A program made the translations under genes and the position numbers. The notes beneath the pieces are model-generated. The model was given only the letters and a program-made list of their open reading frames with translations. It did no database searches and was not told the DNA's origin. From contig NZ_FNIQ01000003.1 in the NCBI RefSeq assembly GCF_900104025.1, forward strand, positions 496,001 through 560,000: 64,000 bases of DNA. The letters are read 5' to 3'. The first letter of the stretch is position 1, and every line of letters starts with the position of its first letter. The DNA is from Geodermatophilus sp. DSM 45219 (GTDB lineage: Bacteria > Actinomycetota > Actinomycetes > Mycobacteriales > Geodermatophilaceae). This document shows, piece after piece, positions 25,128 through 52,629 of this stretch.

Positions 25128-25141
25128 GTTCCACGTGGAAC
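25128..25141. promoter_or_regulatory. parS-like palindrome, copy 1
   Basis: Perfect 14-bp palindrome GTTCCACGTGGAAC between two divergent genes. It resembles ParB-binding parS (consensus close to GTTTCACGTGAAAC in Streptomyces), with one symmetric change per half-site. Further exact copies lie at 34000-34013 and 51777-51790. Confidence 0.6.
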
Positions 25142-25255
25142 GGCGGGGCGTCCCCGTGCGGGAACCGTCCCGCCGCCCGGGTGCAGCGGGCGGCTCGCGA
25201 CCGCCGGTGACAGGCTGTGGCCCGGCGCGCGAGCTGGTCGAGGACGGGAGACGAC

Positions 25256-26209
25256 GTGCAGGCGGTGTTCTACGAGCGGCCGGGTGGCCCCGAGGTGCTG
25301 ACGGTCCGCGAGGTACCCGACCCCGAGCCCGGCGACGGCGAGGTGCTCGTCGACGTCGAGGCCGTGGGCGTCAACTTCCGCGACGTCTACGAACGCGAGG
25401 GCCGCCCGCCCTACGCCGCCGGCCCGTCCGCCGTGATCGGCGTGGAGGGGGCGGGCACCGTCGCCGGCACGGGGGAGCGGGTCGCCTGGCTCGACGTCCG
25501 GGGCAGCTACGCCGCCCGGGTGGCCGCACCGCGGGACAAGCTGGTCCCGGTGCCCGACGGCGTGCCCCTCGACGTGGCCGCCGCCGCCATGCTGCAGGGC
25601 TGCACCGCCCGGTACCTGGTCGCCGACTCGTACCCGGTGGCCGAGGGCGACTGGGCGGTCGTGCACAGCGCGGCCGGGGGAGTGGGGCTGCTGCTCACCC
25701 AGCTGGTGCGCGACCGCGGCGGGCACGTGCTGGCCACCACCTCCACCGAGGAGAAGGCCGAGCTGGCGCGGGCGGCCGGCGCCGACGACGTCGTCGTCGG
25801 CTACGACGGCTTCGCCGAGCGGGTCCGCGAGCTGTCCGGCGGCGAGGGCGCCGCGGTGGTCTACGACGGGGTCGGCCGGACGACGTTCGCCGCCGGGCTG
25901 ACCGCGCTGCGGCCCACCGGCCGGATGATCGTGTACGGCGCCGCCAGCGGGCAGCCCGAGCCGCTGGAGGTGCACTCCCTGGCCACCCACGGCTCGCTGT
26001 ACGTCCAGCGGCCGACGCTGGCGACCTACACGCGGACGCCGGAGATGCTGCGGGAACGGGCCGGCGCGGTGCTGGACCTGGTGGCCGCCGGCCGGCTCGA
26101 CGTCCGCATCGGCGACCACCACCCGCTCGCCGGGGCCCGCCGCGCCCACGAGGACCTCGAGGGCCGGCGCACCACCGGCAAGATCCTGCTGCAGCCGCAG
26201 GCGTCCTGA
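25256..26209 (+). CDS. Zinc-independent quinone oxidoreductase (MDR family)
   Basis: NADPH-dependent reductase of quinones or similar acceptors. 317 residues, with the family's FYERPGGPEVLTVREVPDP opening, GVNFRDVYERE (zeta-crystallin signature), the nucleotide-binding GxGxxG-like AAGGVGLLLTQL and the C-terminal GKILLQP. No zinc-binding cysteines. I prefer GTG 25256, which has GGGAG five bases upstream. Divergent from the NAGGN operon, with a parS-like site between. Confidence 0.88.
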   Translation: MQAVFYERPGGPEVLTVREVPDPEPGDGEVLVDVEAVGVNFRDVYEREGRPPYAAGPSAVIGVEGAGTVAGTGERVAWLDVRGSYAARVAAPRDKLVPVPDGVPLDVAAAAMLQGCTARYLVADSYPVAEGDWAVVHSAAGGVGLLLTQLVRDRGGHVLATTSTEEKAELARAAGADDVVVGYDGFAERVRELSGGEGAAVVYDGVGRTTFAAGLTALRPTGRMIVYGAASGQPEPLEVHSLATHGSLYVQRPTLATYTRTPEMLRERAGAVLDLVAAGRLDVRIGDHHPLAGARRAHEDLEGRRTTGKILLQPQAS

Positions 26210-26276
26210 GGACGGCCCCTGCCCCCGCCACGCGCAGGCTCGCGGCGGGGGCAGGGGGCCGTTCCAGGACCTCACC
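26207..26276 (+). repeat. Family A dispersed repeat, hairpin between convergent genes
   Basis: Begins at the quinone reductase stop (TGAGGACGGCCCC) and ends GGCCGTTCCAGGACCTCACC, directly against the mazF-like stop. Arms 26213-26228 and 26245-26261 pair over about 16 bp. A bidirectional terminator is likely. Confidence 0.7.
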
Positions 26277-26624
26277 TCACAGCGACAGGTGCAGCCGCAG
26301 GGCGTCGTCCAGGGCGGCCGTCGCTGCGAGCGACACGCTGCCCAAGGCGGGTCCGAGCCGATCGACCGACACGGCCCGGACCTGCTCGGCCTGGGCCTTG
26401 GAGTCCACGTCCAGCCCGGTCTCGTCCGCGGTCAGCAGCACCTGGAACGGGAAGACACGGGTGGTGTCGCTCGTCACGGGGACCACCGTGACCACGCCCC
26501 GGCCCAGCCTTCCGGCGACCGCGTCGGCCTGGTCGTTGCTCACCACGACCGTCGGGCGGCGGCTGCCCGCCTCACTGCCACGCACGGGGTCGAGGTCGAC
26601 CAGCCGGACCTCGCCACGGCGCAT
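26277..26624 (-). CDS. MazF/PemK-type endoribonuclease toxin
   Basis: 115 residues with the CcdB/PemK fold marks: MRRGEVRLVDLDPVRGSEAG, RRPTVVVSNDQA (the usual RP-V-VSND motif) and TVVPVTSDT. Such toxins cut mRNA when not bound by antitoxin. Its ATG shares one base with the stop of the antitoxin gene upstream (TGATG). Complete, no damage seen. Confidence 0.9.
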   Translation of the reverse strand: MRRGEVRLVDLDPVRGSEAGSRRPTVVVSNDQADAVAGRLGRGVVTVVPVTSDTTRVFPFQVLLTADETGLDVDSKAQAEQVRAVSVDRLGPALGSVSLAATAALDDALRLHLSL

Positions 26625-26842
26625 CAGCGGAGCCCATCGGCGGTGACGCCCTCCCAGACCTCGTGGTCACCGGAGTCGTCCCACTCCTGCCAGGCCGCCG
26701 CGTAGTCCTGCTCGAGCTGCTGGCGCGTCAGCAGGCGGATGGCGCACTGCACCGCAGCCGACCTGGAGGGCAGACCGGCGGTCCGCACGTGCTCGTCGAG
26801 AGCGGCCAGGTCGGCCTCCGACAGGCTGACGCCGAGTTCCAC
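26624..26842 (-). CDS. Ribbon-helix-helix antitoxin of the MazF-like toxin
   Basis: A 72-residue RHH/MazE-like antitoxin. ELGVSLSEADLAALDEHVR forms the beta strand and first helix, then SRSAAVQCAIRLL, with an acidic, Trp-rich tail (AAWQEWDDSGDHEVWEG) that would cover the toxin. I choose GTG 26842, which has GGAGGAG nine bases upstream; GTG 26878 is the alternative. It should also repress its own promoter. Confidence 0.87.
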   Translation of the reverse strand: MELGVSLSEADLAALDEHVRTAGLPSRSAAVQCAIRLLTRQQLEQDYAAAWQEWDDSGDHEVWEGVTADGLR

Positions 26843-26917
26843 ACCGCGATGCTCCTCCGGTGGCACCGTGACCACCACCGCGCCGCTGGAGTCGAGGGCC
26901 TCTCCGCGCCGGACCGG

Positions 26918-27109
26918 TCACGACCAGAGGACGCCGATCCGGCGTCCGGCCAGCTCGTGCACCTCGACCTCCACGTCGAACACCGTGCGCAGCAGCTCCG
27001 GCGTCATCAGGTCGGCGGTCGGCCCCTCGGCGACCAGCTGCCCCCCGCGCATGGCCGCGATCCGGTCGGAGCAGCGGGAGGCCACCTCGACGTCGTGGAC
27101 GACGAGGAC
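26918..27109 (-). pseudogene. C-terminal remnant of an iron/siderophore-type ABC transporter ATPase
   Basis: About 63 codons match the end of FhuC/BtuD-type ATPases: VLVVHDVEVASRC (H-loop HD), DRIAAMRGGQLVAEGP, DLMTPELLRTVFDVEVEV. No Walker A, signature or Walker B region precedes it, and no start is present. The break lies near 27110. It is a degraded leftover, perhaps from a deletion that also brought in the toxin-antitoxin pair. Confidence 0.72.
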
Positions 27110-27208
27110 TCTCCTACTGGGGTGCGGCTCGGCCAAGTGAGGCCTGACTGACCTGCCACACGACCCGTTGCACGTGTCAACCAGGAGCGAGCGGGCAGAG
27201 GTGTGGCC

Positions 27209-28195
27209 ATGGAGACACGCACACTGGGACAGCTGACCGTCTCGGCCCAGGGGCTGGGCTGCATGGGGATGAGCGAGTTCTACGGGACCGGCGACCAGGC
27301 CGAGGCCGAGCGCACGATCCGGCGGGCGCTGGACCTCGGCGTGACCTTCCTCGACACCGCCGACATGTACGGCCCCTTCACCAACGAGCAGCTGGTCGGC
27401 CGGGCCATCGCGGGCCGGCGGGACGAGGTGGTGCTGGCGACCAAGTTCGGGGTGGACCGCCGTGACGGCGGCCGCGCCGTCGACGGCCGGCCCGACTACG
27501 TCCGCCACGCCTGCGACGCCTCCCTGCAACGCCTCGGCGTGGACGTCATCGACCTCTACTACCAGCACCGGGTGGACACCACCGTGCCCGTGGAGGACAC
27601 CTGGGGCGCGCTGGGCGAGCTGGTGGCGGCCGGCAAGATCCGGCACGCCGGCATCTCCGAGGCCGCGCCGGAGACCATCCGGCGGGCGCACGCCGTGCAG
27701 CCGGTGACCGCCGTGCAGACCGAGTACTCGCTGTGGACCCGCGATCCCGAGGACGACGGCGTGCTGGCCACCTGCGCCGAGCTCGGCATCGGCTTCGTCG
27801 CCTACTCACCCATCGGCCGCGGCTTCCTCTCCGGGCAGATCCGCAGCGTCGAGGACCTCGCGCCCGACGACTTCCGGCGGTCCAACCCGCGGTTCCAGGG
27901 CGAGGCCTTCCAGCAGAACCTCGCGCTGGTCGACCGGGTGCGGGAGATCGCCGACGAGAAGGGCGTGACCGCCACCCAGCTGGCACTGGCCTGGGTGATG
28001 GCGCAGGGCGGGCGCGGGAGCAACCCGGCCGTCGTGCCGATCCCGGGGACCAAGCGGGTGGCCTACCTGGAGGAGAACGCCGCGGCCGCCGACGTCCGGC
28101 TGACCGACGAGGAACTGCGCCGGCTCGACGAGGCCGCCCCCGTCGGGGCCGCCTCGGGCGACCGCTACCCCGACATGTCCGGCATCCACCGCTGA
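27209..28195 (+). CDS. Aldo/keto reductase
   Basis: NADPH-dependent reductase of the AKR superfamily, 328 residues, TIM barrel. Catalytic tetrad: Asp and Tyr in [20 protein letters not shown], Lys in VLATKFG, His in LYYQHRVD. C-terminal cofactor segment is [18 protein letters not shown]. It resembles the YajO/AKR13-like group of soil bacteria; substrate unknown. ATG 27209 has AGAGG seven bases upstream; a GTG two codons earlier is too close to it. A family A repeat begins at its stop. Confidence 0.92.
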
Positions 28196-28320
28196 AGGAA
28201 GAGGGCCTCCCTGCCCCCCGCCCACTCGCGAGCTCGCGGCGGGACCCTGCAGGGAGCCAGCGGGACCCGGGACGGGGCCGGCGGCGGGCCCCTGCAGGGG
28301 GGCCGTTCCAGGACCTCACC
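28193..28320 (+). repeat. Family A dispersed repeat, long variant
   Basis: Starts at the aldo/keto reductase stop (TGAAGGAAGAGGG), contains GAGCTCGCGGCGGGACC and a second arm GCCCCTGCAGGGGGGCCG, and ends GTTCCAGGACCTCACC. At 128 bp it is longer than the other members and may be two nested copies. Confidence 0.65.
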
Positions 28321-28363
28321 GGGCGGTGACCGGCACGTTCCCGGCACGCGGGAGGATGGCCCC

Positions 28364-28399
28364 GTGCCCGACACCGCCGTGACAGGGGCCTCCCGGTGA
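28364..28399 (+). CDS. Possible 11-residue leader peptide coupled to a membrane protein
   Basis: GTG 28364 opens MPDTAVTGASR and stops in a GTGA overlap with the GTG of the next gene. GAGGAT lies six bases before the GTG, the spacing expected for a -10 box of a leaderless transcript. The overlap suggests translational coupling. Too short to be certain. Confidence 0.3.
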   Translation: MPDTAVTGASR

Positions 28400-28761
28400 C
28401 CCCCGTGCTCGTCGTCGCGGTCACCGTGGCCGCCGCCTTGCTCACGCTGGCCGGGATCGCTTCGACCCTCGCCCGGCGGCGGATCGGCCTGCTGCACCTG
28501 GCGGGCACGGCGGTGCTGGAGGCGCTGCTGCTGGTGCAGGCGGTGCTCGCCGTCGTCCGGCTGGTGCAGGGCGAGCGCCCGGCCGACACCCCGACCTTCC
28601 TCGGCTACCTGGCGGGCATCGTGCTGCTCCCGGTGGCCGGGGCGCTGTGGGCGCGCAGCGAGCCGACCCGCTGGGCGGGCAGCGTCCTGGCCGTGGCGGC
28701 CGCCGCGGTGGGCGTGATGGTGTGGCGGCTCCAGCAGCTGTGGGAGGCAACGGGTGGCTGA
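28396..28761 (+). CDS. Small integral membrane protein, function unknown
   Basis: 121 residues with four predicted membrane helices (about 3-23, 33-56, 65-85, 92-110), a short basic loop after helix 1 (LARRRIG) and no catalytic motif. It overlaps the following membrane gene by 8 bp, so the two may form one complex. Start is GTG 28396. Confidence 0.7.
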   Translation: MTPVLVVAVTVAAALLTLAGIASTLARRRIGLLHLAGTAVLEALLLVQAVLAVVRLVQGERPADTPTFLGYLAGIVLLPVAGALWARSEPTRWAGSVLAVAAAAVGVMVWRLQQLWEATGG

Positions 28762-29179
28762 GCCGTCGGGGGAGCGGCCGGCGGGGGAGCCGCCGCCGGC
28801 CGCCGGTGGACCGGGCCGGCTGCTCGTCGCGGTCTACGGCGTCTTCGCGCTGGCCACCGGCGCGCGGGCCGTCGTCCAGCTGGCGACCCGCTACGCCGAG
28901 GCGCCGGTCGCCTACCTGCTGTCCGCCCTGGCCGCCGCCGTCTACGTCGTCGCGACGGTGGCCTTGGCCCGGGGCGGACGGCGGACCGCGCTGGTCGCGA
29001 TCACCGTCGAGCTGGTCGGCGTCCTGGTCGTCGGCACGCTGTCGCTGCTGGAGCCGGCCGCGTTCCCCGACGAGACGGTGTGGTCGGCGTACGGCCGCGG
29101 CTACCTCTTCATCCCGCTGGTGCTGCCGGTCGCCGGCCTGCTGTGGCTGCGCCGCACCGCCCGGACGCCGTCCCGCTGA
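28754..29179 (+). CDS. Small integral membrane protein, function unknown
   Basis: 141 residues. A Pro/Gly-rich cytoplasmic N-terminus (about 1-20) precedes four predicted helices (LLVAVYGVFALATGARAVV, a central pair, and LFIPLVLPVAGLLWL). It ends in an Arg-rich tail. GTG 28754 lies inside the previous gene. I do not recognise a family. Confidence 0.72.
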   Translation: MAEPSGERPAGEPPPAAGGPGRLLVAVYGVFALATGARAVVQLATRYAEAPVAYLLSALAAAVYVVATVALARGGRRTALVAITVELVGVLVVGTLSLLEPAAFPDETVWSAYGRGYLFIPLVLPVAGLLWLRRTARTPSR

Positions 29180-29199
29180 TCGAGGACGGCGGCTCTTGC

Positions 29200-29280
29200 C
29201 GGATCCCGTCGGCCCCGTCCCGGGTCCCGCTCCGAGCCTGCGAAGGGTGGGGAGGAGGGGGTCCTCCTACGAGGGATGGG
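29200..29280 (-). repeat. Family A dispersed repeat, divergent copy
   Basis: On the minus strand it reads GGAGGACCCCCTCC, then CGCAGGCTCGGAGCGGGACC and CGGGACGGGGCC, matching the copies at 34925 and 28193. It lies past the stop of the minus-strand Gly-rich gene (29297), again in that gene's sense. It lacks the usual end block. Confidence 0.5.
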
Positions 29281-29296
29281 GGGACGCGCGGTCCAC

Positions 29297-29998
29297 CTAG
29301 AACTCGCCGCCGCCGAAGTCGCCCCCGAAGTCCCCACCCGGGTCGGCGCCGCCGGCGAGGTCCCCGCCCGGGTCGCCGCCGTAGTCGCCCCCGGCGTCCT
29401 CGTGGCCCTGGGCGTAGGCCTCCTCGTCACCGCCGCCGAACAGGCCGCCGTCCCCGAGCCCGGTGTCGAACAGCGCGTCGGCGACCGCCGTCCCAACCAC
29501 CAGGCCACCGACCGTGCCGAGCAGGCTGGCGCCCACCATGCTCCCGAAGCCGGGTCCACCCCGGCCGTACCCGCCGCCGTACCCGCCCCCGTACCCGCCG
29601 GGGCCCGGTCCGAAGGCCCGCTCCAGCGTCCCGGGCTGGCGCACCTCGGCGCGGGTGGCCGCGCGGGCGAGGGTGCGGGGGTCGTCCGAGCGCGGCCGCT
29701 CCGACGAGGGCACCGCAGCGGCGAGCTGCACCAGCACCTCCTGCCGCTGCTGCGGGGTGAGCTGGGCGAACGCCTCGGCGTGCGCCTCCTCGATCTGGTC
29801 CGGCGGCGCCGTGCGCAGCAGGTAGCGGTAGCGCTCGACGGCCTGCTGGTCGGTCGACGTCCCGCCCTGCGGCGGGGGCGGTGGCTGGTGGCCACCTCCC
29901 TGGTAGCCGCCGTACTGCGGCGAGACGTGCTGGTACCCGTCGTATGCCTGGTCGGAGCCGGAACGGCGGCGGCCGAACAGCCGGTCGAGCAGTCCCAT
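29297..29998 (-). CDS. Gly-rich protein of unknown function
   Basis: 233 residues. An N-terminal basic amphipathic segment (MGLLDRLFGRRRSG) could bind membrane, followed by a Tyr/Gln/Pro-rich stretch. A helical region (about 48-125, LTPQQRQEVLVQLAAAVP) comes next, then GGY repeats (about 130-145), a hydrophobic GASLLGTVGGLVVGTAVADALF segment and an acidic Gly-Asp tail that ends GGDFGGGEF. ATG 29998 has GGAGGGAG upstream. The tail resembles GGDFGGG termini of several actinobacterial membrane-associated proteins of unknown role. Confidence 0.7.
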   Translation of the reverse strand: MGLLDRLFGRRRSGSDQAYDGYQHVSPQYGGYQGGGHQPPPPPQGGTSTDQQAVERYRYLLRTAPPDQIEEAHAEAFAQLTPQQRQEVLVQLAAAVPSSERPRSDDPRTLARAATRAEVRQPGTLERAFGPGPGGYGGGYGGGYGRGGPGFGSMVGASLLGTVGGLVVGTAVADALFDTGLGDGGLFGGGDEEAYAQGHEDAGGDYGGDPGGDLAGGADPGGDFGGDFGGGEF

Positions 29999-30136
29999 GT
30001 CGATCGTCTCCCTCCGGTGGGGCGCCGGCGCACCCCGCCGGAGGGGTTCCCGCCGAGCCGCCGGCCACACCTCCGCAGGCGCAACCGCTGGTCAGACGGC
30101 TCACCCCCGTGGTGGCTGGCAGGGCGGGAGCCGCAC

Positions 30137-30142
30137 TACTGT
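30137..30142 (+). promoter_or_regulatory. Putative -10 box (TACTGT) for a leaderless transcript
   Basis: TACTGT ends seven bases before GTG 30150, with no ribosome site between. This is the typical geometry of leaderless actinobacterial mRNAs. Confidence 0.4.
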
Positions 30143-30149
30143 CGTTCCC

Positions 30150-32405
30150 GTGCCGGCCGAGCGGGACCGTCCGCGGGACTCGTCCCCCGTCCAGCGCCCC
30201 GACGGCGGCATGGGCCGCGAGGAGGCCGGGATCCTCACCGCGGCCGCCACCCTGGTCTCCGAGCGGGAGGGCACCGCATCGGCTGCCCTGCCCGGCGTGC
30301 TGGCCGACGTCCCGGTGGCGGTGCTGCTCATCGACCGCGGCGCCGGCTCGGTCACCTACGCCAACAGCGCGGCGGTGGAGCTGGCCGGCAACGTGCGCCT
30401 CCCCGTCGACGTCGACCGCTGGGGCTCCTCGGTGGGCCTCACCGACCTGGGCGGCCAGCCGCTGGCCAGCACGTCGGGCCCGCTGTCGCTGGTCGCGCAG
30501 GGCCTGCCGGTCACCGGCGAGGCGGTGCGGATCGCGCCGGGCGGAGGCAGCGACCAGGACGGCACCGGGAGCGACCAGCTGCTGTGGGTCACCGGCTTCC
30601 CGCTGTCCGGGCCCGACGGCGAGGAGCAGTTGTCCCTGGTGGTCTTCCTCGAGGTCGAGGGCGACGGCCCGGCCGAGGACCACCTGCAGGCGCTGCGGGA
30701 GCGGGCCGTCGTCGCCACTGACATCGCCTTCACCATCACCGACCCCCGCCAGCCGGACGACCCGCTGATCTGGGTGAACCCCTCCTTCACCCGCATCACC
30801 GGCTACGAGTACGGCGAGGCCGTCGGGCGCAACTGCCGCTTCCTGCAGGGCCCGGCCACCGACCCCGCGGCGGTCGTCGAGATCCGCACCGCGCTCGAGG
30901 CCCGGCAGCCGGTCACCACCACGCTGCTCAACCACCGCAAGGACGGCACCGCCTTCTGGAACCAGCTGTCGATCACCCCGGTGTTCGACGGCGCGGGCGA
31001 GCTCGTCAGCTTCGTCGGCGTGCAGACCGACGTCACCGAGCGGGTGCGCGTCGAGCGCGAGCGGGAGGCCGCCTTCGCCGCCGAGCGGGCTGCCCGTCAG
31101 GAGGCCGAGCAGGCCCGGGCCGACGCCGAGCGGGCCCGGGCCGACGCCGAGCGCATGCAGGGCCGGCTGGCGCTGATGGCCGAGGCGACGAGCACGCTGA
31201 TCGCCACGCTCGACCTCACCGACGTCCTCGACCGGCTGGCCCGGCTGTGCGTGCCGCTGCTCGCCGACTGGGTGTTCATCTCCATGGTCGACGACGCCGG
31301 GACCGTCCGGGAGACCGCCTCCCGTCACCGCGACGGGTTCGCCGACGAGCTGGCGCTGCTGGCCGCCCAGCACGCCGGGCAGCTGCCGGAGACCTCCCCC
31401 ACCCGCCGCAGCATCGCGACCGCGCGGCCGGTGCTGGTGCAGCACGCCGACCTCGACCTCGACGCGCTGTTCGCCAGCGCGGGGACCCGCGAGGCCGCGG
31501 CGCGCCTCGGTGCGGCCTCGCTGCTCGCCGTCCCCATGGTGGCCCGGCGGCGGACCCGCGGCGCCATCCTGCTCGCCCGCAGCGACGCCGAGCGCCCCTT
31601 CACCCAGGAGGACGTCGACCTCGCCGAGGACCTCGCGCGCCGGGCCGCGCTCGCGATGGACAACGTGCGGCTGTACCAACAGGAGCACGCCGTCGCCGAC
31701 ACGCTGCAGCGGTCGCTGCTGCCCGACCTGCCCTCGATCGGCAGGGTCGAGTCGGCCGCCCACTACGTCAGCGCCTCGACCGCCGCCGACGTGGGAGGCG
31801 ACTTCTACGACCTGCTCGAGCTGCCCGACGGGTCGATCGGGGTGGTCGTCGGCGACGTCGTCGGCCACGACATCGCGGCCGCGGCGGCGATGGGGCACCT
31901 ACGGGGGCTCCTCCGGGCCTCGGTGTGGGAGGCGCCCGACCCCGACCCGGCGGCCGTGCTGGCCCGGGTCGACCGGCTCGTGCAGGGCCTGGGTGTCGCC
32001 TCGATGGCGACGATGGTCTACGTCCGGGCCGAACGCCCGGAGCAGGACGGCGCACCGTGGCGGCTGCACCTCGCGAGCGCCGGCCACCCGCCGCCCCTGC
32101 TGCGCACGCCCGACGGCGCGGTGCAGCTGCTCGACGGCGTGACCGGCCTGCTCATCGGCGTCGACGACAGCCTGCCCCGTACCTCGACGTCGATCGACCT
32201 GCCGCCCGGCACCACGCTGGTGGCCTACACCGACGGGCTCATCGAGCGGCCCGGTGCCGACCTCGACGACGGCATCGGCGAGCTGGTCGGCCGGCTGGCC
32301 GGCGCCCGGGCCGGGGCCGGCCCCCGGGAGCTCTGCGACGCCGCGGTCGCCGGCTCCCTGGACGGCCGGGACGACGTCGCGCTGATCGCCGTCCGGTTCT
32401 GCTGA
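30150..32405 (+). CDS. PAS-LOV-GAF-PP2C (SpoIIE-type) phosphatase, probable blue-light sensor
   Basis: About 751 residues. An N-terminal PAS-like domain spans about 45-180. A LOV domain spans about 187-300 with the photoactive-cysteine motif GRNCRFLQG (Cys229) and the flavin contacts NHRKDGTAFWNQLSI and FVGVQTDVT. A coiled coil follows (AERAARQEAEQARADAERA), then a GAF domain (about 345-505). The PP2C/SpoIIE domain has metal-binding GGDFYDLLEL, VGDVVGHD, SAGHPPPLL, YTDGLIE and DDVALIAV. Such proteins dephosphorylate anti-anti-sigma factors. No anti-sigma or STAS gene adjoins it. Start at GTG 30150 fits a leaderless promoter; ATG 30210 is the alternative. Confidence 0.9.
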   Translation: MPAERDRPRDSSPVQRPDGGMGREEAGILTAAATLVSEREGTASAALPGVLADVPVAVLLIDRGAGSVTYANSAAVELAGNVRLPVDVDRWGSSVGLTDLGGQPLASTSGPLSLVAQGLPVTGEAVRIAPGGGSDQDGTGSDQLLWVTGFPLSGPDGEEQLSLVVFLEVEGDGPAEDHLQALRERAVVATDIAFTITDPRQPDDPLIWVNPSFTRITGYEYGEAVGRNCRFLQGPATDPAAVVEIRTALEARQPVTTTLLNHRKDGTAFWNQLSITPVFDGAGELVSFVGVQTDVTERVRVEREREAAFAAERAARQEAEQARADAERARADAERMQGRLALMAEATSTLIATLDLTDVLDRLARLCVPLLADWVFISMVDDAGTVRETASRHRDGFADELALLAAQHAGQLPETSPTRRSIATARPVLVQHADLDLDALFASAGTREAAARLGAASLLAVPMVARRRTRGAILLARSDAERPFTQEDVDLAEDLARRAALAMDNVRLYQQEHAVADTLQRSLLPDLPSIGRVESAAHYVSASTAADVGGDFYDLLELPDGSIGVVVGDVVGHDIAAAAAMGHLRGLLRASVWEAPDPDPAAVLARVDRLVQGLGVASMATMVYVRAERPEQDGAPWRLHLASAGHPPPLLRTPDGAVQLLDGVTGLLIGVDDSLPRTSTSIDLPPGTTLVAYTDGLIERPGADLDDGIGELVGRLAGARAGAGPRELCDAAVAGSLDGRDDVALIAVRFC

Positions 32406-33016: not shown

Positions 33017-33955
33017 TCACCCGACGACGGGCAGTGGCCGCGGCACCGACCGGCCACCCGCCCGGTACAGCGAGCTGGGCAGCTCGTGGCCCACGGCGTC
33101 CTCGGTGACCCGGGCGGCGGCCAGCACGGCGTCGAGGTCCAGCCCGGTGCGCACGCCGGACTCCTCGAGCATGTAGACCAGCTCCTCGGTGGCGATGTTG
33201 CCGCTGGCGCCCGGCGCGAACGGGCAGCCACCCAGCCCGCCCACCGACGCGTCCAGCTGGGTGGCCCCCGCCTGGACCGCGGCCAGCGCGTTGGCCTGAC
33301 CGGTGCCCCGGGTGTCGTGGAAGTGCACGCCCACCTCGATCCCGGGACAGGCCCGGCGGACGGCGTCGAGCAGCTGCACCACCCGCAGCGGGGTGGTCGT
33401 GCCGATGGTGTCGCCCAGGCAGAGCCGGTCGGCGCCGGCGGTGACCGCGGCACGGGCGACGTCCACGGTGCGGGGGATGGGCGTGCGGCCGTCGAAGGGG
33501 CAGTCCCACGCCGTCGCGATGATGACCTCCAGCGAGCCGCCGGCGCCGTGCGCCAGGCCGGCCACCTCACCCACCGCGGCCACCGCCTCGGCCGTGCTGC
33601 GGCCGGCGTTGGCCCGGCTGTGCCCGTCGGCGGCCGAGACGACGTACTCCAGGTCGGCGATGCCGGCGTCCACGGCCCGGACCGCGCCGCGGGCGTTGGC
33701 GACGAGCGCGGAGAAGGCGACGCCGTCGAAGCGGTGCAGCTCGGCGGCCACCTGGTCGGCGTCGGCCAGCGCGGGGACGGCCTTGGGTGAGACGAACGAG
33801 GTGACCTCGATCCAGCGGACGCCGGTGGCCACCAGCGCCTCCAGCATCGCCAGCTTGCCCTCCAGGGGCACCGCCGCCTCCAGCTGCAGGCCGTCGCGCA
33901 TGCCGACCTCGCGGACGTCCACGGTCGCGGGCAGCACCAGGTCGAACTCGTTCAC
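33017..33955 (-). CDS. mvaB: Hydroxymethylglutaryl-CoA lyase-like enzyme
   Basis: Cleaves HMG-CoA to acetoacetate and acetyl-CoA in leucine degradation. 312 residues, DRE-TIM fold: VREVGMRDGLQLE (Arg-Asp catalytic pair), IEVTSFVSPKAVPALADAD, GVHFHDTRGTG (metal His) and GGLGGCPFAPGASGN (active-site Cys loop). GTG 33955 has GAGGAGG upstream. It stands alone without leucine-catabolic neighbours, so a related acyl-CoA substrate cannot be excluded. Confidence 0.92.
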   Translation of the reverse strand: MNEFDLVLPATVDVREVGMRDGLQLEAAVPLEGKLAMLEALVATGVRWIEVTSFVSPKAVPALADADQVAAELHRFDGVAFSALVANARGAVRAVDAGIADLEYVVSAADGHSRANAGRSTAEAVAAVGEVAGLAHGAGGSLEVIIATAWDCPFDGRTPIPRTVDVARAAVTAGADRLCLGDTIGTTTPLRVVQLLDAVRRACPGIEVGVHFHDTRGTGQANALAAVQAGATQLDASVGGLGGCPFAPGASGNIATEELVYMLEESGVRTGLDLDAVLAAARVTEDAVGHELPSSLYRAGGRSVPRPLPVVG

Positions 33956-33997: not shown

Positions 33998-34015
33998 GCG
34001 TTCCACGTGGAACGC
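33998..34015. promoter_or_regulatory. parS-like palindrome, copy 2 (extends to 18 bp)
   Basis: The 14-bp core GTTCCACGTGGAAC (34000-34013) is extended by two bases on each side to the perfect 18-bp palindrome GCGTTCCACGTGGAACGC. It lies between the divergent HMG-CoA lyase and GGDEF genes. Confidence 0.62.
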
Positions 34016-34039: not shown

Positions 34040-34927
34040 GTGGACGCTTCGGGCGTGCTGCCACCCGCTGACCAGCGCACCGTGTTCACCCACGCCCCCA
34101 TGGGCATCCTCATCGCCACGCCCGCGGGGACGGTGACCGCGGCGAACCCGGCGCTGGCCGGGATGCTGGGTAGCGGCGCCGAGGAGCTGGTCGGCAGCCA
34201 GGTGCTCGACTGGGTGCACCCCGACGAGCGACCCGCGACGGCGGAGGCCTACACCGACGTCGTCGAGCGGCACCGGGTGATGCGGCACGAGACCCGGCTG
34301 GTCCGGCGGGACGGCAGCGTCGTCCCCACGCAGATCACCTCGGCCTGGGTGGACGAGACACCCACCGGGGACGCCGCCCACCTGGTGGTGATCGTCGAGG
34401 ACATCACCGAGCGCAAGGGCCTGGAGACCGCGCTCGTGCACCGGTCGCTGCACGACCCGCTCACCGGGCTGCCGAACCGGGCGCTGTTCACCGACCGGCT
34501 GCGGCACGCCCTCGAACGCGGCCGCCGCGAGGGGACGCCGACGAGCCTGCTGGGCATCGACCTCGACGGCTTCAAGCGCATCAACGACGTGCACGGGCAC
34601 CCGGTCGGCGACGAGGTGCTGGTCGCCTTCGCCGGGCGGCTGACCTCGGTGCTGCGCGCGAGCGACACCGCGGCCCGCGTCGGCGGCGACGAGTTCAGCG
34701 TCGTGTGCGAGAACAGCGGGCGGGTCGACGCCGAGGCGCTCGCCGCCCGGCTGCGGCGCGCGGCCGCCGAGCCGCTGCGGCTGGCCGGTGGGCTGGTGCT
34801 CCCGCTCTCGATGAGCATCGGGATCGCCACGGTGGAGGGCGGCGCGGACCCGGAGCAGGCGTTCGGGGGGCTCGTCCGCGCCGCCGACGCCGCGATGTAC
34901 GCCGACAAGGGCGCCCGCCGGGGCTGA
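34040..34927 (+). CDS. Diguanylate cyclase with PAS sensor
   Basis: 295 residues. A PAS domain (about 12-125: APMGILIATPAGTVTAANPA, LDWVHPDERP, DITERK) is followed by a complete GGDEF domain (DPLTGLPNRALF, DLDGFKRINDVHGHPVGDEVL, RVGGDEFSVV). It would make cyclic di-GMP from two GTP, tuning motility or surface growth. No inhibitory RxxD site is obvious five residues before GGDEF, and no EAL domain is present. The GTG at 34040 is four bases after GGAGG; the adjacent GTG 34037 is too close to it. Confidence 0.92.
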   Translation: MDASGVLPPADQRTVFTHAPMGILIATPAGTVTAANPALAGMLGSGAEELVGSQVLDWVHPDERPATAEAYTDVVERHRVMRHETRLVRRDGSVVPTQITSAWVDETPTGDAAHLVVIVEDITERKGLETALVHRSLHDPLTGLPNRALFTDRLRHALERGRREGTPTSLLGIDLDGFKRINDVHGHPVGDEVLVAFAGRLTSVLRASDTAARVGGDEFSVVCENSGRVDAEALAARLRRAAAEPLRLAGGLVLPLSMSIGIATVEGGADPEQAFGGLVRAADAAMYADKGARRG

Positions 34928-47012: not shown

Positions 47013-47110
47013 AGGCTGTCCCCCCACGCCGCCGTGCCCGGCCTCCCCGGGCGGCCGACTGTAGTTCCCGCCCGGCCGCGACGGCCGCACCCCCACCGGC
47101 CCGGGACGAC

Positions 47111-47147
47111 GACGGGCGCCGCGGACCCGGGGTCCACGGCGCCCGTC
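47111..47147 (-). terminator. Hairpin terminator after the MCP ending at 47162
   Basis: Arms 47111-47128 and 47130-47147 pair over 18 bp with one G-U-compatible mismatch, 14 bases past the MCP stop and upstream of the BluB-CobT gene. Confidence 0.7.
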
Positions 47148-47161
47148 GGAGGCTGCCACGG

Positions 47162-48766
47162 TCAGTAGCGGAAGCGCTGCACCAGCTCCTGCAGGCCCCC
47201 GGACATGCGGGCCAGCTCCTCGGCCGCCTGCCGGGTCTGCGCGACCCCGGCCGTGGTGGCCGACGCGGCGTGGGCGACACCGCTGATGGTCCCGGCGATC
47301 TCCCCGCTGCCCGTCGCCGCCTCGGCCACGCTGCGGTTCATCTCCGCGGTCGTGGCGCCCTGTTCCTCCACCGCCGACGCGATGGTCGTCTGGTAGTCGT
47401 TGATCTGGCCGATGATCGTGCTGATCCGGCCGATGGCGTCCACGGCGCCCGAGGTGTCGCCCTGGATCGCCTGCACCCGCCGGGCGATGTCCTCCGTGGC
47501 CTTCGCGGTCTCCTGGGCCAGCTCCTTGACCTCGTTGGCCACCACCGCGAACCCCTTGCCCGCCTCACCGGCACGCGCGGCCTCGATGGTGGCGTTCAGC
47601 GCCAGCAGGTTGGTCTGCTCCGCGATGCTCGTGATGGTCTTGACCACGTCGCCGATCTCCTGGGAGGAGGACCCCAGCCGGGTCACGGTGTCCGTCGTCT
47701 CCTGCGCCGCCCGGACGGCGGTGCCGGCGACCCGGGCGGCCTCGGAGGCGTTCTGCGCGATCTCGTGGATCGAGGCGCCCATCTCCTCGGAGCCGGAGGC
47801 CACGGTCTGCACGTTGCGGGAGATCTGCTCCGCGGCGGCGGCCACCGCGCCGGCCTGGTCCGCGGTCTGCTCGGCGCTGCCGGCGATCGCCTCGGACGAG
47901 CCGCTGAGCTGCTCGGCGGCGGCGGCGAGGGCGGCGGCGGACCCGGCGGTCGAGGCCACGGTGCTGCGCAGGCTCTCGGCCGCCTGGTTGAGGGCGCCGG
48001 CCATCTGGCCGACCTCGTCGCGGGAGGAGACCTCGACCCGCGCGGTCAGGTCCCCGGCGGCCATGGCGACCAGGCCGTCCCGGACGGCGGTCACCGGGCG
48101 GATCACCAGCTGGGCGACGAGCCAGCCGAGCGCGACGGCCAGGGTGAGGCCGAGGCCGAGGACGGCGAGGATCAGGGTGCGGGAGGACGCCGCGGTGTCC
48201 TCGGCCGCCTGCACGGCGACCTCCGCACCGGCGGCCTCGGACTCCTCGAGCCGGGTGAGGGCCTCGTTGAGGGCCACCGCGATGGGCTTGACCTCGGTGG
48301 TGCGCAGGGCCAGGTAGGCGTCCATCTGGCCGGAGTGGGCGAGCGCCAGCAGCTCACCGCTCACGATCTCCTCGTACGCGCGCCAGGAGTCGGTCAGGGC
48401 GTCGACGTCCGCCTGCTGCTCGGTGGTCAGCGCACTGCCCTCGGCGTAGGCCGCGATGGCGGCGTCCATGGCCTCGAGGTCGGCCAGGTAGGCCTGGTGC
48501 TCGACGTCCTCGGGACCCTTGGGCAACAGCTCGTCGGCGAGCGCGTCGACGCGGGTCTGCAGGTAGGCGCGCCGGATCTCGGCCAGCTGCATCGACGGGT
48601 CCAGCGCCTCGGTGTGCACCTCCTCCGCGCGCTCGGCCACGTCGGCCACCTGGCGGAGGGCGAGGAGACCGACGGTCAGGGCGACGACGCAGGCCACCGC
48701 GACCGCGGTGAGCACCTTCACCCGCAACGGGAGCGAGAGCAGACGGGAGGGGACGGAGAGTCGCAC
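47162..48766 (-). CDS. Methyl-accepting chemotaxis protein (transmembrane), unlinked copy
   Basis: 534 residues. TM1 is near 16-39 ([20 protein letters not shown]), then a helical sensor domain, TM2 ([20 protein letters not shown]), HAMP ([13 protein letters not shown]) and the same signalling tip [19 protein letters not shown] as the cluster at 9108-17978, but with a more diverged flanking coiled coil ([20 protein letters not shown]). GTG 48766 has GAGG six bases upstream. No GTGTCGAC box upstream, unlike the clustered copies. Confidence 0.94.
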
Positions 48767-48853
48767 GGAATACCTCGGGAGCCGATCGGATGGGGCAACC
48801 CGGGGTTTCGACCGATTCCGTCCGATCTCCAGTCGAGATCCTGGATCGGATCC

Positions 48854-49696
48854 TCAGCCCTCCACGCGCTCGAGGAACCGCCGGATCGTCTCCAGGAACA
48901 CCTCGGGCTGCTCCGAGTGCACCCAGTGCCCGGCCTTCTTCACCGTCACCAGCCGCGTCTCGGGGAACAGCTCGTCCATCCGGGCGCGGTCCTCCGGCAG
49001 CACGTAGTGCGAGTTCGCGCCCGCGATCCACAGCACCGGACCGCCGAAGCGGGCGCCCGGCGGCGGGTCGGGGAAGCCGCGCAGCTCGCCGAGGTCGCGC
49101 TCGAGCAGCTCCAGGTTCAGCCGCCAGCGCCAGCCGCCGCCGGCCCCGATCCCCTCACGGACGAGGCTCTGCATGAGGAACGAGCGGACCATCGTGCTGG
49201 GGACGGCGGTGCGCAGGGCGGCGTCGGCGTCCTCACGGGTGTCCACCGCGTCGAGGTCCAGCGCGCGCATCGCGGCGATGTACGCGGCGAACGGGGATGC
49301 CTCCTCGTCGGGGTCGTCGGTGCGGCCGCCGGAGACCGGGTACTCGACCGGGGCGATGTCGACGACGACCAGCGCGCGCAGCAGCTCCGGGTGGCGCAGC
49401 GCCAGCTGCATCGCCACCTTGCCGCCCATCGAGTGGCCGACGAGGGTCACCGGCCCGCCGGAGGAGGCGAGCTCGGCGGCGACCAGCTCGGCCATGTCGA
49501 CGTAGTCGACCCGGTCGGTCCACGGCGAGTGCCCGTGGTTGGGCAGGTCGAGCAGGGTCACCCGGTGGTCGGTGGCGAGCCCCTTGGCGATCGTCGTCCA
49601 GTTCCTGCCCTGGCCGAACAACCCGTGCACGAACACCACGCGCGGCCCGGCCGAGCCCAGCGTCCGGGCGTGCAGCCGCTCCTCCTCGTCGGTCAC
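48854..49696 (-). CDS. Alpha/beta hydrolase (YbfF/MenH-like)
   Basis: 280 residues. Oxyanion strand VVFVHGLFGQGRNWTTIAKGL, nucleophile elbow LVGHSMGGKVAMQLA (Ser), an acidic residue region LWIAGANSHYV and catalytic His in KKAGHWVHSEQPEVF are all present. An esterase or thioesterase acting on an unknown substrate. Start GTG 49696. Independent of the MCP gene downstream, apart from sharing the strand. Confidence 0.88.
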   Translation of the reverse strand: MTDEEERLHARTLGSAGPRVVFVHGLFGQGRNWTTIAKGLATDHRVTLLDLPNHGHSPWTDRVDYVDMAELVAAELASSGGPVTLVGHSMGGKVAMQLALRHPELLRALVVVDIAPVEYPVSGGRTDDPDEEASPFAAYIAAMRALDLDAVDTREDADAALRTAVPSTMVRSFLMQSLVREGIGAGGGWRWRLNLELLERDLGELRGFPDPPPGARFGGPVLWIAGANSHYVLPEDRARMDELFPETRLVTVKKAGHWVHSEQPEVFLETIRRFLERVEG

Positions 49697-49842
49697 CCGG
49701 TCATTGCACCAGAGTCCGCAGGGGACGCTCGGGGGCACCGGCGGCGACGGGTGGGTGGGTGCCAGGAGCCGGGGGCGCCCGCCGGGTCGCGGGCAGCCGG
49801 GAAGCACCCGCCGGCGGCGTCCCGGCTGCCGCCCTGCGGTGG

Positions 49843-50235
49843 TCAGCGCAGCAGGTCGACAGTGCACCGCAGGCCGGGCGCTCTGGAGAGCCGCCCGTCG
49901 CCCGTCACCAGCGGGACGTCGAGCAGCTCGGCGAGTGCCACGTACTGCGCGTCGTAGGCGCTGATCGAGTTCCGGAGCTCCCACGCCCGCGCCAGCAGCA
50001 GAAGGTGGGGATGGCGTTCCAGGGCCAGCTCGGCGTAGTCCTCCAGCGCCGCAGTGCCCCGCTCGCGGGTGAGCCGGCCACCCAGCACCTCGCGCCGGAC
50101 GACGGAGAGCACCTCCACGTCCGCGAGCTCGGGCGCGTGGACGTCGGAGCCCAGGAGCCGCTCGCGCGCCAGGGCACCGGCCGAGCCGTCGTCCACCAGG
50201 GCCGGCACGAGCACCGACGCGTCGGCGACGATCAC
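49843..50235 (-). CDS. vapC: VapC-type PIN-domain ribonuclease toxin
   Basis: 130 residues. The acidic PIN residues are visible: MIVADASVLVPAL (first Asp), PELADVEVLSV (Glu), ISAYDAQYVALAELL (Asp) and VTGDGRL (Asp). Such toxins cut tRNA or rRNA when free. Start GTG 50235 overlaps the antitoxin stop (GTGA). Appears intact. Confidence 0.92.
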   Translation of the reverse strand: MIVADASVLVPALVDDGSAGALARERLLGSDVHAPELADVEVLSVVRREVLGGRLTRERGTAALEDYAELALERHPHLLLLARAWELRNSISAYDAQYVALAELLDVPLVTGDGRLSRAPGLRCTVDLLR

Positions 50236-50465
50236 GTGCTGTCCTCGCGTCCGGCGGCCACGGCGGCGACCGCCTCGTCGAAGGAGAGCCGTCCGCCACG
50301 GCGAGCGGCCCGGGCCAGCACCTGGGCCTTGCTCGGCCGGGCAGCGACCGCCTGCAGCTCGCGCAGCACGTACTCCGAGAGGCTCAGTCCGCTCTCCGCC
50401 GCCCGTTCACGCAGCACGGCGTGCAACTCGTCCGGGACGTGGCGGACCTGCAACATCTTCGGCAC
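50232..50465 (-). CDS. vapB: VapB/FitA-type antitoxin
   Basis: 77 residues. An RHH DNA-binding N-terminus (MLQVRHVPDELHAVLRERAA, SLSEYVLRELQAV) is followed by a toxin-binding tail (RLSFDEAVAAVAAGR). Start is GTG 50465 or the ATG three codons later. The promoter region holds four phased ACATGTG-type repeats, the likely operator for self-repression by the VapBC complex. Confidence 0.92.
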   Translation of the reverse strand: MPKMLQVRHVPDELHAVLRERAAESGLSLSEYVLRELQAVAARPSKAQVLARAARRGGRLSFDEAVAAVAAGREDST

Positions 50466-50476
50466 GATGCCACTCT

Positions 50477-50515
50477 ACATGTGCCGCACATGTGACCACA
50501 TGTGGTGCGCATGTG
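50477..50515. promoter_or_regulatory. vapBC operator: four helically phased heptamers
   Basis: ACATGTG at 50477, 50488 and 50498 and GCATGTG at 50509 are spaced 11, 10 and 11 bp apart. Each contains the self-complementary CATG, so they sit on one face of the helix just upstream of vapB. This fits cooperative binding of RHH dimers. Confidence 0.75.
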
Positions 50516-50536
50516 CTCCGGGCCGTCCGACAGGCG

Positions 50537-50731
50537 TCACTCCCGTGGCTCAGGACCGTGCCAGTCCCACCGGGAGCGCCAGGTCCTCGGGGTCTGCAGC
50601 CCCTCGGCGAGGTCCGGCCACGGCGGGTGGGGCAGGGGCGTGCCGTCGAGGCGGACCGGACGCGTGCCGTCCCAGCCGTTCCGGAGGACCTCCGCGGCAT
50701 CGGTCGGCGGGGCCGGGAGGCAGCAGCTCAC
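50537..50731 (-). CDS. Possible small Trp/Pro-rich protein
   Basis: 64 codons with consistent high-GC third positions, product with a CC pair at residues 3-4 and a Trp-rich C-terminus (TWRSRWDWHGPEPRE). No ribosome site is clear before GTG 50731 and I recognise no family. It could be a short gene, or part of the leader upstream of vapB. Confidence 0.42.
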   Translation of the reverse strand: MSCCLPAPPTDAAEVLRNGWDGTRPVRLDGTPLPHPPWPDLAEGLQTPRTWRSRWDWHGPEPRE

Positions 50732-50904
50732 CGCTGCAGGAGCGCCGGTCTGCAGCCGTGCTCACCAGCAGGGCGGGGAAGGGCCCTCGGTCCGCAGGTC
50801 CGGCGCCCGGCGGGGCACCACGCGATCCGGCCGGGGCCGACGCACGATCCCGGGGTGGCACGGCCCGAACGGAGCCGCCGCCCGAGGAGAGGAGCACCTC
50901 GCAC

Positions 50905-52629
50905 ATGCCCGGACGGCGTCGGCGGACGACGAGCCGCTCGACCAGCACCACCCGCACCGCGACGACGACCCGCCGGAAGGCGCCGGCCCGCCGCACTGCG
51001 ACGCCGACGCCCGAGCGGCCGGTCGCCGGGCCGGGGGAGCGGGTGTGGGTGCTCGCCGTCCCCTTCCGGGCGCCGGCGCCGGGCGCCCAGTGGCGGGCGG
51101 ACCTGCAGGCCCACGTGTGGGTCGGCCGCGAGCTGCCGCCGGAGCTGGCCGCCTACGACCCGCCGCCGTACACCCTCGAGCGGTTCCTCGAGGACGAGCT
51201 CAACGACACCCCGCGGCCGGTGCCGCCGGGCCGGCCGCTGGTGCCGCGCGAGGAGCAGGCGACCGGCGCGGAGGCGGTGGTCGCCTCGGCTGCCGCGGGC
51301 CACCGCGTCTTCCTGCTGGGCGACGACCCGGGCGTGGGCAAGACGGGGACCGCCGTCCTGGCCGCGCGGGAGGTGTGCGAGATGCGCGGCGGGACGCGGG
51401 TACTGGTCGTCGCCGACCGCCCGGCGGCCATCACCATCCCGCACTGGACCCGCTCGATCGCCGGCTTCGGCGACGGCGGGCTGCGCTGGTGCGTCACCAC
51501 CTGGGACCGGCTGGCGAAGGTGGCGGAGCTGCGGTTCGACGTCGTCATCGCCGACGAGGCGCACATGGTCCGGCACACGACCACGCAGCGGTGGAAGCAC
51601 TGGAAGGCCGTCTCCGGCGGCGGCCGGAGCAAGGACGTGCCGTTCGTCGTCGCCGCCACCGCCACCCCGGCACACACGCCCCTGGAGCTGCCCTACCTCG
51701 CGCCGCAGTTGGCGCAGCGGCACGGGGAGCCGCTGCGCGCCTGGGCGGACCTCCCGGCGAAGCTCGCCGAGCACGGGTTCCACGTGGAACGAGGCCGCTA
51801 CGGGTGGGCGTGGACCGAGGACGCCGACGCCCGCCGTGCCGACCTCGCCCGGCTGCAGGGCTGGCTGGCCGCCGGCGACCCGCCCGCGACGCTGCACCGC
51901 CCTGCCCCGTGGGGCGCGGTGTCGGTCACCGGGACGCCGGTCGCCCTGACCCCGGCCGAGCAGGCCGCCTACGAGTCCGGGTGGCAGGAGTTCCGCGCCG
52001 AGATGCAGCTGGCCCGCAGGGCCCGGCAGACCGCGCGCGGCCGGGCCGCGCTGCTGCGGTTCCGGCAGAAGGCAGGCCTGATCCGCGCCCAGGCCACCGT
52101 CGACTGGGTGAAGGCGCAGGTGGAGGCCGAGCGGCAGGTCGCGGTGTCGGTGGAGTTCGTGGAGACGGCGGCCGACCCGATCCGCGAGGCGCTGCTGGAC
52201 TCCGGGATCGCGGTGGCGGGCATCTACGGCCGCGACCGGTTCGACGTCGAGGCCGAGCGGCTGCGCTTCCAGTCCGGGGAGGCACCGGTGTGCGTGTTCA
52301 CCGTGACCGCCTCGATCAGCCTGCACGCGGGGGAGCTGCTGCCCGGTGGCGGGACCGCCTCGACGGCGCCGCGGGTCGGGCTGTTCCACCAGCCGCGCTT
52401 CTCCGGCATCCAGGCCCGCCAGGTGACCGGCCGCACGCACCGCGACGGCCAGGTCTCGCCGTGGCGGGTCGCGTTCGCCGCGGACACCGTGGAGGAGCAC
52501 GTGGCGCGGGTGATGGTCGAGCGGCTGGCGGTCAGCGGCTCCGCCGCCGGTGCGGACACCTCGGCCCTGCAGGAGATCGCCGAGCTGCTCGACGCCGACT
52601 GGCTGCCTCCGGTCGCCCTCACCGACTGA
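50905..52629 (+). CDS. SNF2-like DEAH-box helicase/ATPase
   Basis: 574 residues. A basic Thr/Arg-rich N-terminus (about 1-40) precedes a superfamily 2 helicase: Walker A LLGDDPGVGKTGTAVLAA, Walker B VVIADEAHMVRH, motif III ATATPAHTP and, in the second RecA-like lobe, VCVFTVTASISLHAG and motif VI QARQVTGRTHRDGQ. The short form resembles SNF2/RapA-type helicases of phages and defence islands more than chromatin remodelers. ATG 50905 has AGGAG ten bases upstream. It adjoins vapBC but on the other strand. A parS-like site lies inside the gene. Role unknown. Confidence 0.85.
   Translation: MPGRRRRTTSRSTSTTRTATTTRRKAPARRTATPTPERPVAGPGERVWVLAVPFRAPAPGAQWRADLQAHVWVGRELPPELAAYDPPPYTLERFLEDELNDTPRPVPPGRPLVPREEQATGAEAVVASAAAGHRVFLLGDDPGVGKTGTAVLAAREVCEMRGGTRVLVVADRPAAITIPHWTRSIAGFGDGGLRWCVTTWDRLAKVAELRFDVVIADEAHMVRHTTTQRWKHWKAVSGGGRSKDVPFVVAATATPAHTPLELPYLAPQLAQRHGEPLRAWADLPAKLAEHGFHVERGRYGWAWTEDADARRADLARLQGWLAAGDPPATLHRPAPWGAVSVTGTPVALTPAEQAAYESGWQEFRAEMQLARRARQTARGRAALLRFRQKAGLIRAQATVDWVKAQVEAERQVAVSVEFVETAADPIREALLDSGIAVAGIYGRDRFDVEAERLRFQSGEAPVCVFTVTASISLHAGELLPGGGTASTAPRVGLFHQPRFSGIQARQVTGRTHRDGQVSPWRVAFAADTVEEHVARVMVERLAVSGSAAGADTSALQEIAELLDADWLPPVALTD
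51777..51790. promoter_or_regulatory. parS-like palindrome, copy 3, within the helicase gene
   Basis: GTTCCACGTGGAAC, identical to 25128-25141 and 34000-34013, encodes part of EHGFHVERGR. Location inside a coding region argues against a local promoter operator and fits parS, which can lie in genes. Confidence 0.6.

What the first reader, a model, noticed from the sequence alone, without database searches (positions are those of the whole stretch)
25128..51790. Three exact copies of a parS-like palindrome
The perfect 14-bp palindrome GTTCCACGTGGAAC occurs at 25128, 34000 and 51777 (spacings about 8.9 and 17.8 kb). A chance 14-mer should be absent from 64 kb. It differs from the known parS core by one symmetric base pair per half. 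One copy is inside a helicase coding region, which fits parS better than a local operator. If true, the window lies in the origin-proximal domain and this lineage uses a shifted parS consensus.
Basis: partly seen in the sequence, partly recalled or inferred. Interest (0 to 1): 0.75.

Follow-up and report, generated by a model that had tools for sequence, protein, structure and literature searches.

The report
Chromosomal parS sites in Geodermatophilus
Three copies of one short mirror-image DNA word are most likely centromere-like tags near the bacterium's replication origin, part of a larger set whose places are kept across related genera although the spelling of the tag differs within the family.

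Summary
In detail: GTTCCACGTGGAAC is at 25128, 34000 and 51777, the window's only 14-bp palindrome with more than one copy. The 4.97-Mb draft genome holds 12 exact copies, all within 205 kb around parAB and dnaA, two of them in the parA-rsmG gap. It has one ParB-family match. The nearest named ParBs are Geodermatophilaceae. Sites recur beside the same genes in four relatives. The parS reading is supported; binding is untested. One correction: this 14-mer is already a known parS in Myxococcus and Pseudomonas. The shift is a lineage event: GTTTCACGTGAAAC is absent from 103 of 103 genomes in nine genera of the family and present in 9 of 9 in three others. ParB's conserved parS-contacting residues are the same on both sides of the switch; specificity position 184 is Lys in C-type and Arg in T-type genera. 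Least expected: half-variant sites (GTTGCACGTGGAAC) lying outside the main zone (18 of 19 on origin contigs).

The parts
25128..25141 (.). parS copy GTTCCACGTGGAAC in the gap between divergent genes (77.9 kb left of the parAB pair)
   Evidence: 14 of 14 bases kept in five genomes, while 6% of flanking columns are invariant; also at the same place in G057, G085, G016.
34000..34013 (.). parS copy GTTCCACGTGGAAC in an 84-bp gap between divergent genes (69.1 kb left of the parAB pair)
   Evidence: kept in G146, G113 and G057, G085; absent from the homologous gap of G106 and G120, where the closest 14-mer has four mismatches.
51777..51790 (.). parS copy GTTCCACGTGGAAC inside the helicase-like gene, read G-F-H-V-E-R (51.3 kb left of the parAB pair)
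   Evidence: 14 of 14 kept in five genomes and in G057, G085, G016; its GAA codon is the only all-GAA column among 21 invariant-Glu columns, 17 of which are all GAG.
23271..25052 (-). N-acetylglutaminylglutamine amidotransferase gene, left neighbour of the first site (start codon read from the sequence)
   Evidence: TIGR03104, 989 bits.
25256..26209 (+). NADPH:quinone reductase-like gene, right neighbour of the first site (start codon read from the sequence)
   Evidence: NF008024 below its curated cut-off, PF00107 above.
33017..33955 (-). hydroxymethylglutaryl-CoA lyase-like gene, left neighbour of the second site (start codon read from the sequence)
   Evidence: NF004283, 288 bits over its cut-off of 246.
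34040..34927 (+). PAS-GGDEF diguanylate cyclase gene, right neighbour of the second site (start codon read from the sequence)
   Evidence: TIGR00254, PF00990.
50905..52629 (+). helicase-like gene (one weak ResIII match) that contains the third site
   Evidence: PF04851 at E 1.9e-6, 28.3 bits over 22.5; 567 codon columns aligned in seven genomes.

Best explanation
The three palindromes are parS sites of the chromosomal ParABS system of a Geodermatophilus-type actinobacterium. The genome's single ParB, encoded 37 kb to the right of the window beside dnaA, most likely loads as a CTP-dependent clamp on each 14-mer and slides into the flanking DNA. This marks the origin domain for ParA-driven movement and for SMC loading. 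Shown here: sites, clustering, parAB/dnaA neighbourhood, single ParB-family match, presence of an SMC gene, and conservation of many site places across genera. Inferred from known systems: binding, spreading, segregation and SMC loading. The fourth base of each half-site differs between genera of the family (T or C), at a position written as variable in other parS consensus sequences; the parS-contacting residues conserved among ParBs do not differ between these genera.
For: 12 exact copies, all within 205,550 bp of one contig, against 0.007 expected in the genome; chance of such a cluster under even scatter about 7e-15. parB at C6:597194-597727(-) and dnaA at C6:603171-604877(+) lie inside the cluster; the order dnaN, dnaA, yidC, jag, rsmG, parA, parB is read by eye from translations. 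A pair of copies sits in the parA-rsmG gap; a pair lies about 1.1-1.3 kb upstream of parB in 13 of the 16 nearest named loci, the other 3 being contigs that begin at parB. One ParB-family match in the genome. ParB has HTH_ParB, ParB_N and ParB_C. Seven site groups are shared by all five genomes compared, one of them with the half-variant in three. The site is intact where flanks are not: 14 of 14 against 6% (25128) and 15% (34000, three genomes) invariant flanking columns. The same 14-mer is bound by ParB in M. xanthus in vitro and in P. aeruginosa in vivo.
Against: No binding data. Relatives' stretches were picked because they hold the motif, so identity of the 14-mer is partly by construction; what is not by construction is that separate hits fall beside the same genes. 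Not all sites are kept: 34000 is missing from its homologous gap in G106 and G120, 641371 has a partner in one of four relatives, and 678729 in none. In the 613106 group the G113 site is offset, and two of 13 groups did not align base for base. The assembly is a draft, and no perfect DnaA box of the two forms searched was found in the 19-kb stretch with dnaA, so oriC is placed by gene neighbourhood only.
Confidence: 0.94

Rival explanations
1. The palindrome is the operator of a transcription factor whose regulon happens to lie near the origin.
For: Two of three window copies are in short gaps between divergent genes, a usual place for operators.
Against: All 12 copies lie around parAB/dnaA; one is inside a gene and kept there with an uncommon GAA codon; the genes beside the window copies have no common theme; identical to an established parS.
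Confidence: 0.03
2. The copies are chance or codon-bias matches in high-GC coding DNA.
For: Window GC is 75%; places with up to three mismatches are near the chance number (5 against 2.4; 10 of 100 shuffles reach 5), and genome places with up to two mismatches barely exceed the reversed control (25 against 23).
Against: Exact copies in the genome are more than 1000-fold over the composition estimate; the reversed control of the exact pattern gives 0; strong clustering; intergenic copies are kept between genera.
Confidence: 0.01
3. The sites bind another ParB-like or Noc-like DNA-binding protein rather than the chromosomal ParB.
For: Noc sites are related palindromes (PMC7383237, passages and section 9 read).
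Against: Only one parB_part match in the genome (22 candidates scored); its residues at Caulobacter positions 173, 178, 179, 201 and 204 are R, N, T, G, R, fitting ParB and not Noc (mapping by motif); the sites carry the parS bases at positions 1 and 6.
Confidence: 0.02

Closest known systems
Myxococcus xanthus parS (consensus TGTTCCACGTGGAACG)
   Same: Identical 14-bp core; many copies; ParB binds it in vitro (PMC3899335, passages read).
   Different: 22 copies packed in 3 kb about 4 kb upstream of parA; here 12 exact copies spread over 205 kb on both sides of parAB.
Pseudomonas aeruginosa / P. putida parS (TGTTCCACGTGGAACM / TGTTCCACGTGGAACA)
   Same: Identical 14-bp core, bound in vivo at four sites near oriC in P. 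aeruginosa (PMC5098823, passages read; table passages of PMC7022226).
   Different: Four strong sites; here 12, plus a half-variant class, part of it at orthologous places.
Streptomyces coelicolor parS (21 sites in the ori domain)
   Same: Actinobacterial, many sites in the origin domain (table passages of PMC7022226).
   Different: T-type consensus; printed there as tGTTTCACCTGAAACa.
parS of other families of the same order (mycobacteria, Micromonospora, Amycolatopsis and others)
   Same: Sites close to parA-parB.
   Different: 107 of 132 genomes outside the family hold GTTTCACGTGAAAC; at most four exact C-type copies in any of the 132.

Membership tests
chromosomal ParABS parS site | Palindrome fitting GTTNCACGTGNAAC | tested here: met
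   Exact at three window places and nine more in the genome.
chromosomal ParABS parS site | Several copies concentrated in the origin domain | tested here: met
   12 of 12 within 205 kb around dnaA.
chromosomal ParABS parS site | parAB operon near the origin, usually with a parS beside it | tested here: met
   parA-parB about 4-6 kb from dnaA; two copies in the parA-rsmG gap.
chromosomal ParABS parS site | A ParB with parS-type recognition residues | tested here: met
   G200, S202, R203, N208, T209, G231, R234 match the set named for ParB, by motif mapping; the equivalent of K171 is Arg in all 81 ParBs aligned.
chromosomal ParABS parS site | Site places conserved between related genomes | tested here: met
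   Seven groups shared by five genomes of four genera; others shared by fewer, one by none.
chromosomal ParABS parS site | ParB binds the site and spreads | not testable with these tools
   Needs ChIP-seq or purified protein.
chromosomal ParABS parS site | Loss of the sites impairs segregation or SMC loading | not testable with these tools
   An SMC gene is present; no phenotype data.
Noc-binding site (NBS) | A at position 1 and C at position 6 of the half-site | tested here: not met
   All 12 exact copies have G1 and A6 (definition in PMC7383237).

The most novel reading that the evidence does not exclude
Within one bacterial family the centromere word was replaced (T to C at position 4 of each half). 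In the same lineage the sites form a graded array: C-type copies in a core around parAB, and half-variant copies (GTTGCACGTGGAAC) in a fringe mostly 65-212 kb out on both sides; in one group the two forms replace each other at the same base position. ParB kept its conserved DNA-contacting residues, so the DNA moved along a position that ParB already tolerated, perhaps pushed by very high GC, with at most a conservative Arg-to-Lys change at specificity position 184. The fringe would be weaker clamp- and SMC-loading points that set the width of the origin domain.
Probability: 0.3. Interest if true: 0.6.

Novelty: new member of a known kind. Interest (0 to 1): 0.42.

Why it matters
It gives a natural experiment in centromere change: genera of one family with the old and the new parS word, gene neighbourhoods conserved enough to follow single sites, and nearly identical ParB recognition helices. 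That makes it testable whether parS sequence drifts neutrally within ParB's tolerance or is tuned for affinity. It also adds a well-supported parS set for a family in which my two searches of open-licence papers found no description of parS.

Tried and rejected
Recognition-helix explanation. Residue 204 of ParB (Caulobacter 174 by motif) is Ser in the window's and the 16 nearest named ParBs (17 of 17) and Pro in 63 of 64 other named ones, which suggested that it drives the C-type site. Rejected: of 14 ParBs read from the unnamed family f10, the 11 from genomes with C-type and no exact T-type sites all keep Pro, and all 8 ParBs read from T-type genera of the window's own family already have Ser (the ninth stretch held no ParB). 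Residue 221 (Thr 17 of 17 against Arg 64 of 64) varies among those genera (3 R, 2 A, 1 S, 2 T). Residue 214 (Caulobacter 184) is Lys in 17 of 17 and Arg in those 8; this does track the switch inside the family, but outside it Lys, Arg and Asn occur in 38, 14 and 12 of 64 mostly T-type loci, so I do not take it as the cause. One of the 8 has Ser instead of Thr at position 179.

GC drift alone. The C share at position 4 is high only in the bin of GC 0.73-0.76 (mean 0.83 of 12 loci, against 0.12-0.22 in four lower bins). The rank correlation is 0.86 inside the family (22 loci) and 0.02 outside it (62 loci), uncorrected for relatedness; 5 of 89 loci without a motif were left out. Kept only as a possible contributor.

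Two of 13 orthologous site groups did not align base for base and are not counted as conserved. In one search I aligned the wrong segment of G106 and G120 for the 34000 site; the right gap was read. Perfect DnaA boxes TTGTCCACA or TTATCCACA (recalled) were sought in the 19-kb origin stretch and not found; five one-mismatch forms lie around dnaA.
Full report
Observation. GTTCCACGTGGAAC occurs exactly three times in the window, at 25128, 34000 and 51777. Composition predicts about 0.0001 copies in 64 kb. It is the only 14-bp palindrome of the window with more than one copy. The first two copies lie in short gaps between divergent genes: between an N-acetylglutaminylglutamine amidotransferase and a quinone reductase-like gene, and between a hydroxymethylglutaryl-CoA lyase-like gene and a PAS-GGDEF gene. 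The third is inside a helicase-like gene, ATG 50905 to stop 52629.

Genome. The window is C6:496001-560000 of a 4.97-Mb draft genome in 12 contigs. The genome holds 12 exact copies, all on C6 between 473193 and 678742. With up to two mismatches there are 25 places, against 23 for the reversed control, so only the exact class and a few one-mismatch places are informative. The single parB match is at 597194-597727 (22 candidates scored, 1 match) and dnaA at 603171-604877. Two copies, 22 bp apart, sit between rsmG and parA; rsmG, parA, jag, yidC and dnaN were recognised by eye from translations. Under even scatter the chance of such a cluster is about 7e-15. Of 10 SMC-model matches one is over the curated cut-off. 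No base outside the 14-mer, within 15 on either side, is shared by all 12 copies.

Who it is. The closest named ParB is from Geodermatophilus chilensis (93% over residues 72-342), followed by Blastococcus, Modestobacter and Klenkia. The window is therefore from Geodermatophilaceae, probably Geodermatophilus; the species is not known. The first 16 of the 80 named loci are taken here as the family (15 so labelled, one labelled 'Frankiales bacterium').

Spread in relatives. In 150 genomes of the order, the 18 of the window's family have 7-15 exact C-type copies and none of GTTTCACGTGAAAC. The other 132 have 0-4 C-type copies (41 of 132 have any), and 107 of 132 have the T-type. For GTTNCACGTGNAAC the family has 11-23 copies and the others 0-15. 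In a class-wide draw of 246 genomes, of which only the window's own is from this family, the other 245 have at most 5 C-type copies (34 of 245 have any; 21 of the 245 were already in the order draw). In 112 genomes of the family, 103 of 103 in nine genera lack the T-type and 9 of 9 in three genera (g154, g155, g156) have one or two T-type copies. In all nine stretches fetched from these three genera the T-type copies are there, and in eight of them the stretch also holds parB. Several of these nine genomes are incomplete (74-98%). The change therefore happened inside the family. No tree was built, so the direction (T to C) is inferred from the T-type being usual in the other families. Another family of the order, f10, also has few copies that are mostly C-type.

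Positions are kept. I fetched the sites of four relatives (G146 of the same genus, G106, G120, G113 of three others) and grouped them by their flanks: seven groups are shared by all five genomes. Of 13 groups aligned at base level, those in gaps between genes show an intact 14-mer next to poorly conserved flanks: 14 of 14 with 6% invariant flanking columns at 25128 (five genomes), 15% at 34000 (three) and 24% at 572540 (three). The 473193 group is invariant except at position 4 (C in two, G in three). At the parAB pair and at 646424 the count is 13 of 14, through a mixed half-site in one row and an alignment gap in another. In the 613106 group the G113 site is offset, and two groups did not align. 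Misses: 34000 is absent from its homologous gap in G106 and G120, 641371 has one partner and 678729 none. Stretches were chosen for holding the motif, so the evidence is the shared neighbourhood rather than the identity of the motif. In the helicase gene the site's GAA codon is the only all-GAA column of 21 invariant-Glu columns, 17 of which are all GAG (seven genomes). Runs of four or more invariant codons occur at eight other places of that gene, so codon invariance as such is not special.

Fringe sites. GTTGCACGTGGAAC, with one half changed at position 4, occurs in the own genome and in the four relatives. On the contigs that hold parAB there are 19 such places; 18 lie outside the span of the exact copies of that contig (own 2 of 2, G146 5 of 5, G120 4 of 4, G106 6 of 6, G113 1 of 2, counted). 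Two more lie on other contigs (one in G106, one in G120), besides one GTTGCACGTGAAAC in G120. One group is C-type in two genomes and half-variant in three at the same base position (473193), and another (405396) is half-variant in four of four. This suggests weaker sites at the edge of the parS zone. I ran no codon-bias control for these, several lie in coding-like DNA, and in P. aeruginosa sites with two mismatches are not significantly bound in vivo (PMC5098823, passages read).

ParB. P0001 has the ParB N-terminal, HTH and C-terminal domains. By motif mapping its residues at Caulobacter positions 170, 172, 173, 178, 179, 201 and 204 fit those named for ParB. The motifs GERRLRA and ENIHR of the CTP pocket are present (labels recalled). 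None of the conserved contact residues that I compared (170-173, 178) separates C-type from T-type genera; position 184 does inside the family (Lys against Arg), but not outside it.

What is known. The same 14-mer is the core of the M. xanthus consensus TGTTCCACGTGGAACG (PMC3899335, passages), of the P. aeruginosa site TGTTCCACGTGGAACM (PMC5098823, passages) and of the P. putida site (PMC7022226, table passages). Position 4 is written N in one half of the B. subtilis and C. glutamicum consensus. Papers holding parS, ParB and Geodermatophil: one, a Streptomyces review; its parS and ParB passages do not speak of this family, though my whole-word search there could not match the full genus name. 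A search that ranks papers by the number of terms held put no paper with Modestobacter among its top ten for parS or centromere. The library covers open-licence papers only.

Verdict. These are very probably parS sites of an ordinary chromosomal ParABS system in a family for which I found none described. The newer parts are the switch of the parS word inside one family with many places conserved, and the fringe of half-variant sites.

Noticed in passing
own genome C6:386920 and 405396; origin contigs of G146, G120, G106, G113: Half-variant sites GTTGCACGTGGAAC lie outside the span of the exact parS copies (18 of 19 on origin contigs).
   Followed up: partly
own genome C11:660247 and 661982 (L017): CTTCCACGTGGAAC and the perfect palindrome CTTCCACGTGGAAG lie 1.7 kb apart on another contig; possibly a different operator or a partition site of another element.
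   Followed up: no
window 9108-18152 and 47162-48766: Five copies of a 300-nt stretch, three of them 97-99% alike. The three genes of these that I scanned (9108-10928, 16368-18152, 47162-48766) are chemoreceptors; the other two were not scanned. Recent duplication or gene conversion is likely.
   Followed up: partly
window 2665-4749 (-): Chemoreceptor with four PAS matches and a 366-bp tandem repeat.
   Followed up: no
L011 (C6:590000-609000): No perfect TTGTCCACA or TTATCCACA box in the 19 kb around dnaA; only one-mismatch forms near the start of dnaA and in the dnaA-dnaN gap. A one-mismatch parS copy (605187) also lies in that gap.
   Followed up: partly
ParB P0001 residues 204 and 221: Ser204 and Thr221 mark the window's and the 16 nearest named ParBs against 64 others (63 Pro, 64 Arg); neither explains the parS switch.
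   Followed up: yes
unnamed family f10 of the same order: C-type sites without exact T-type also occur here, as a set of one to three copies, so the switch may have happened more than once.
   Followed up: partly
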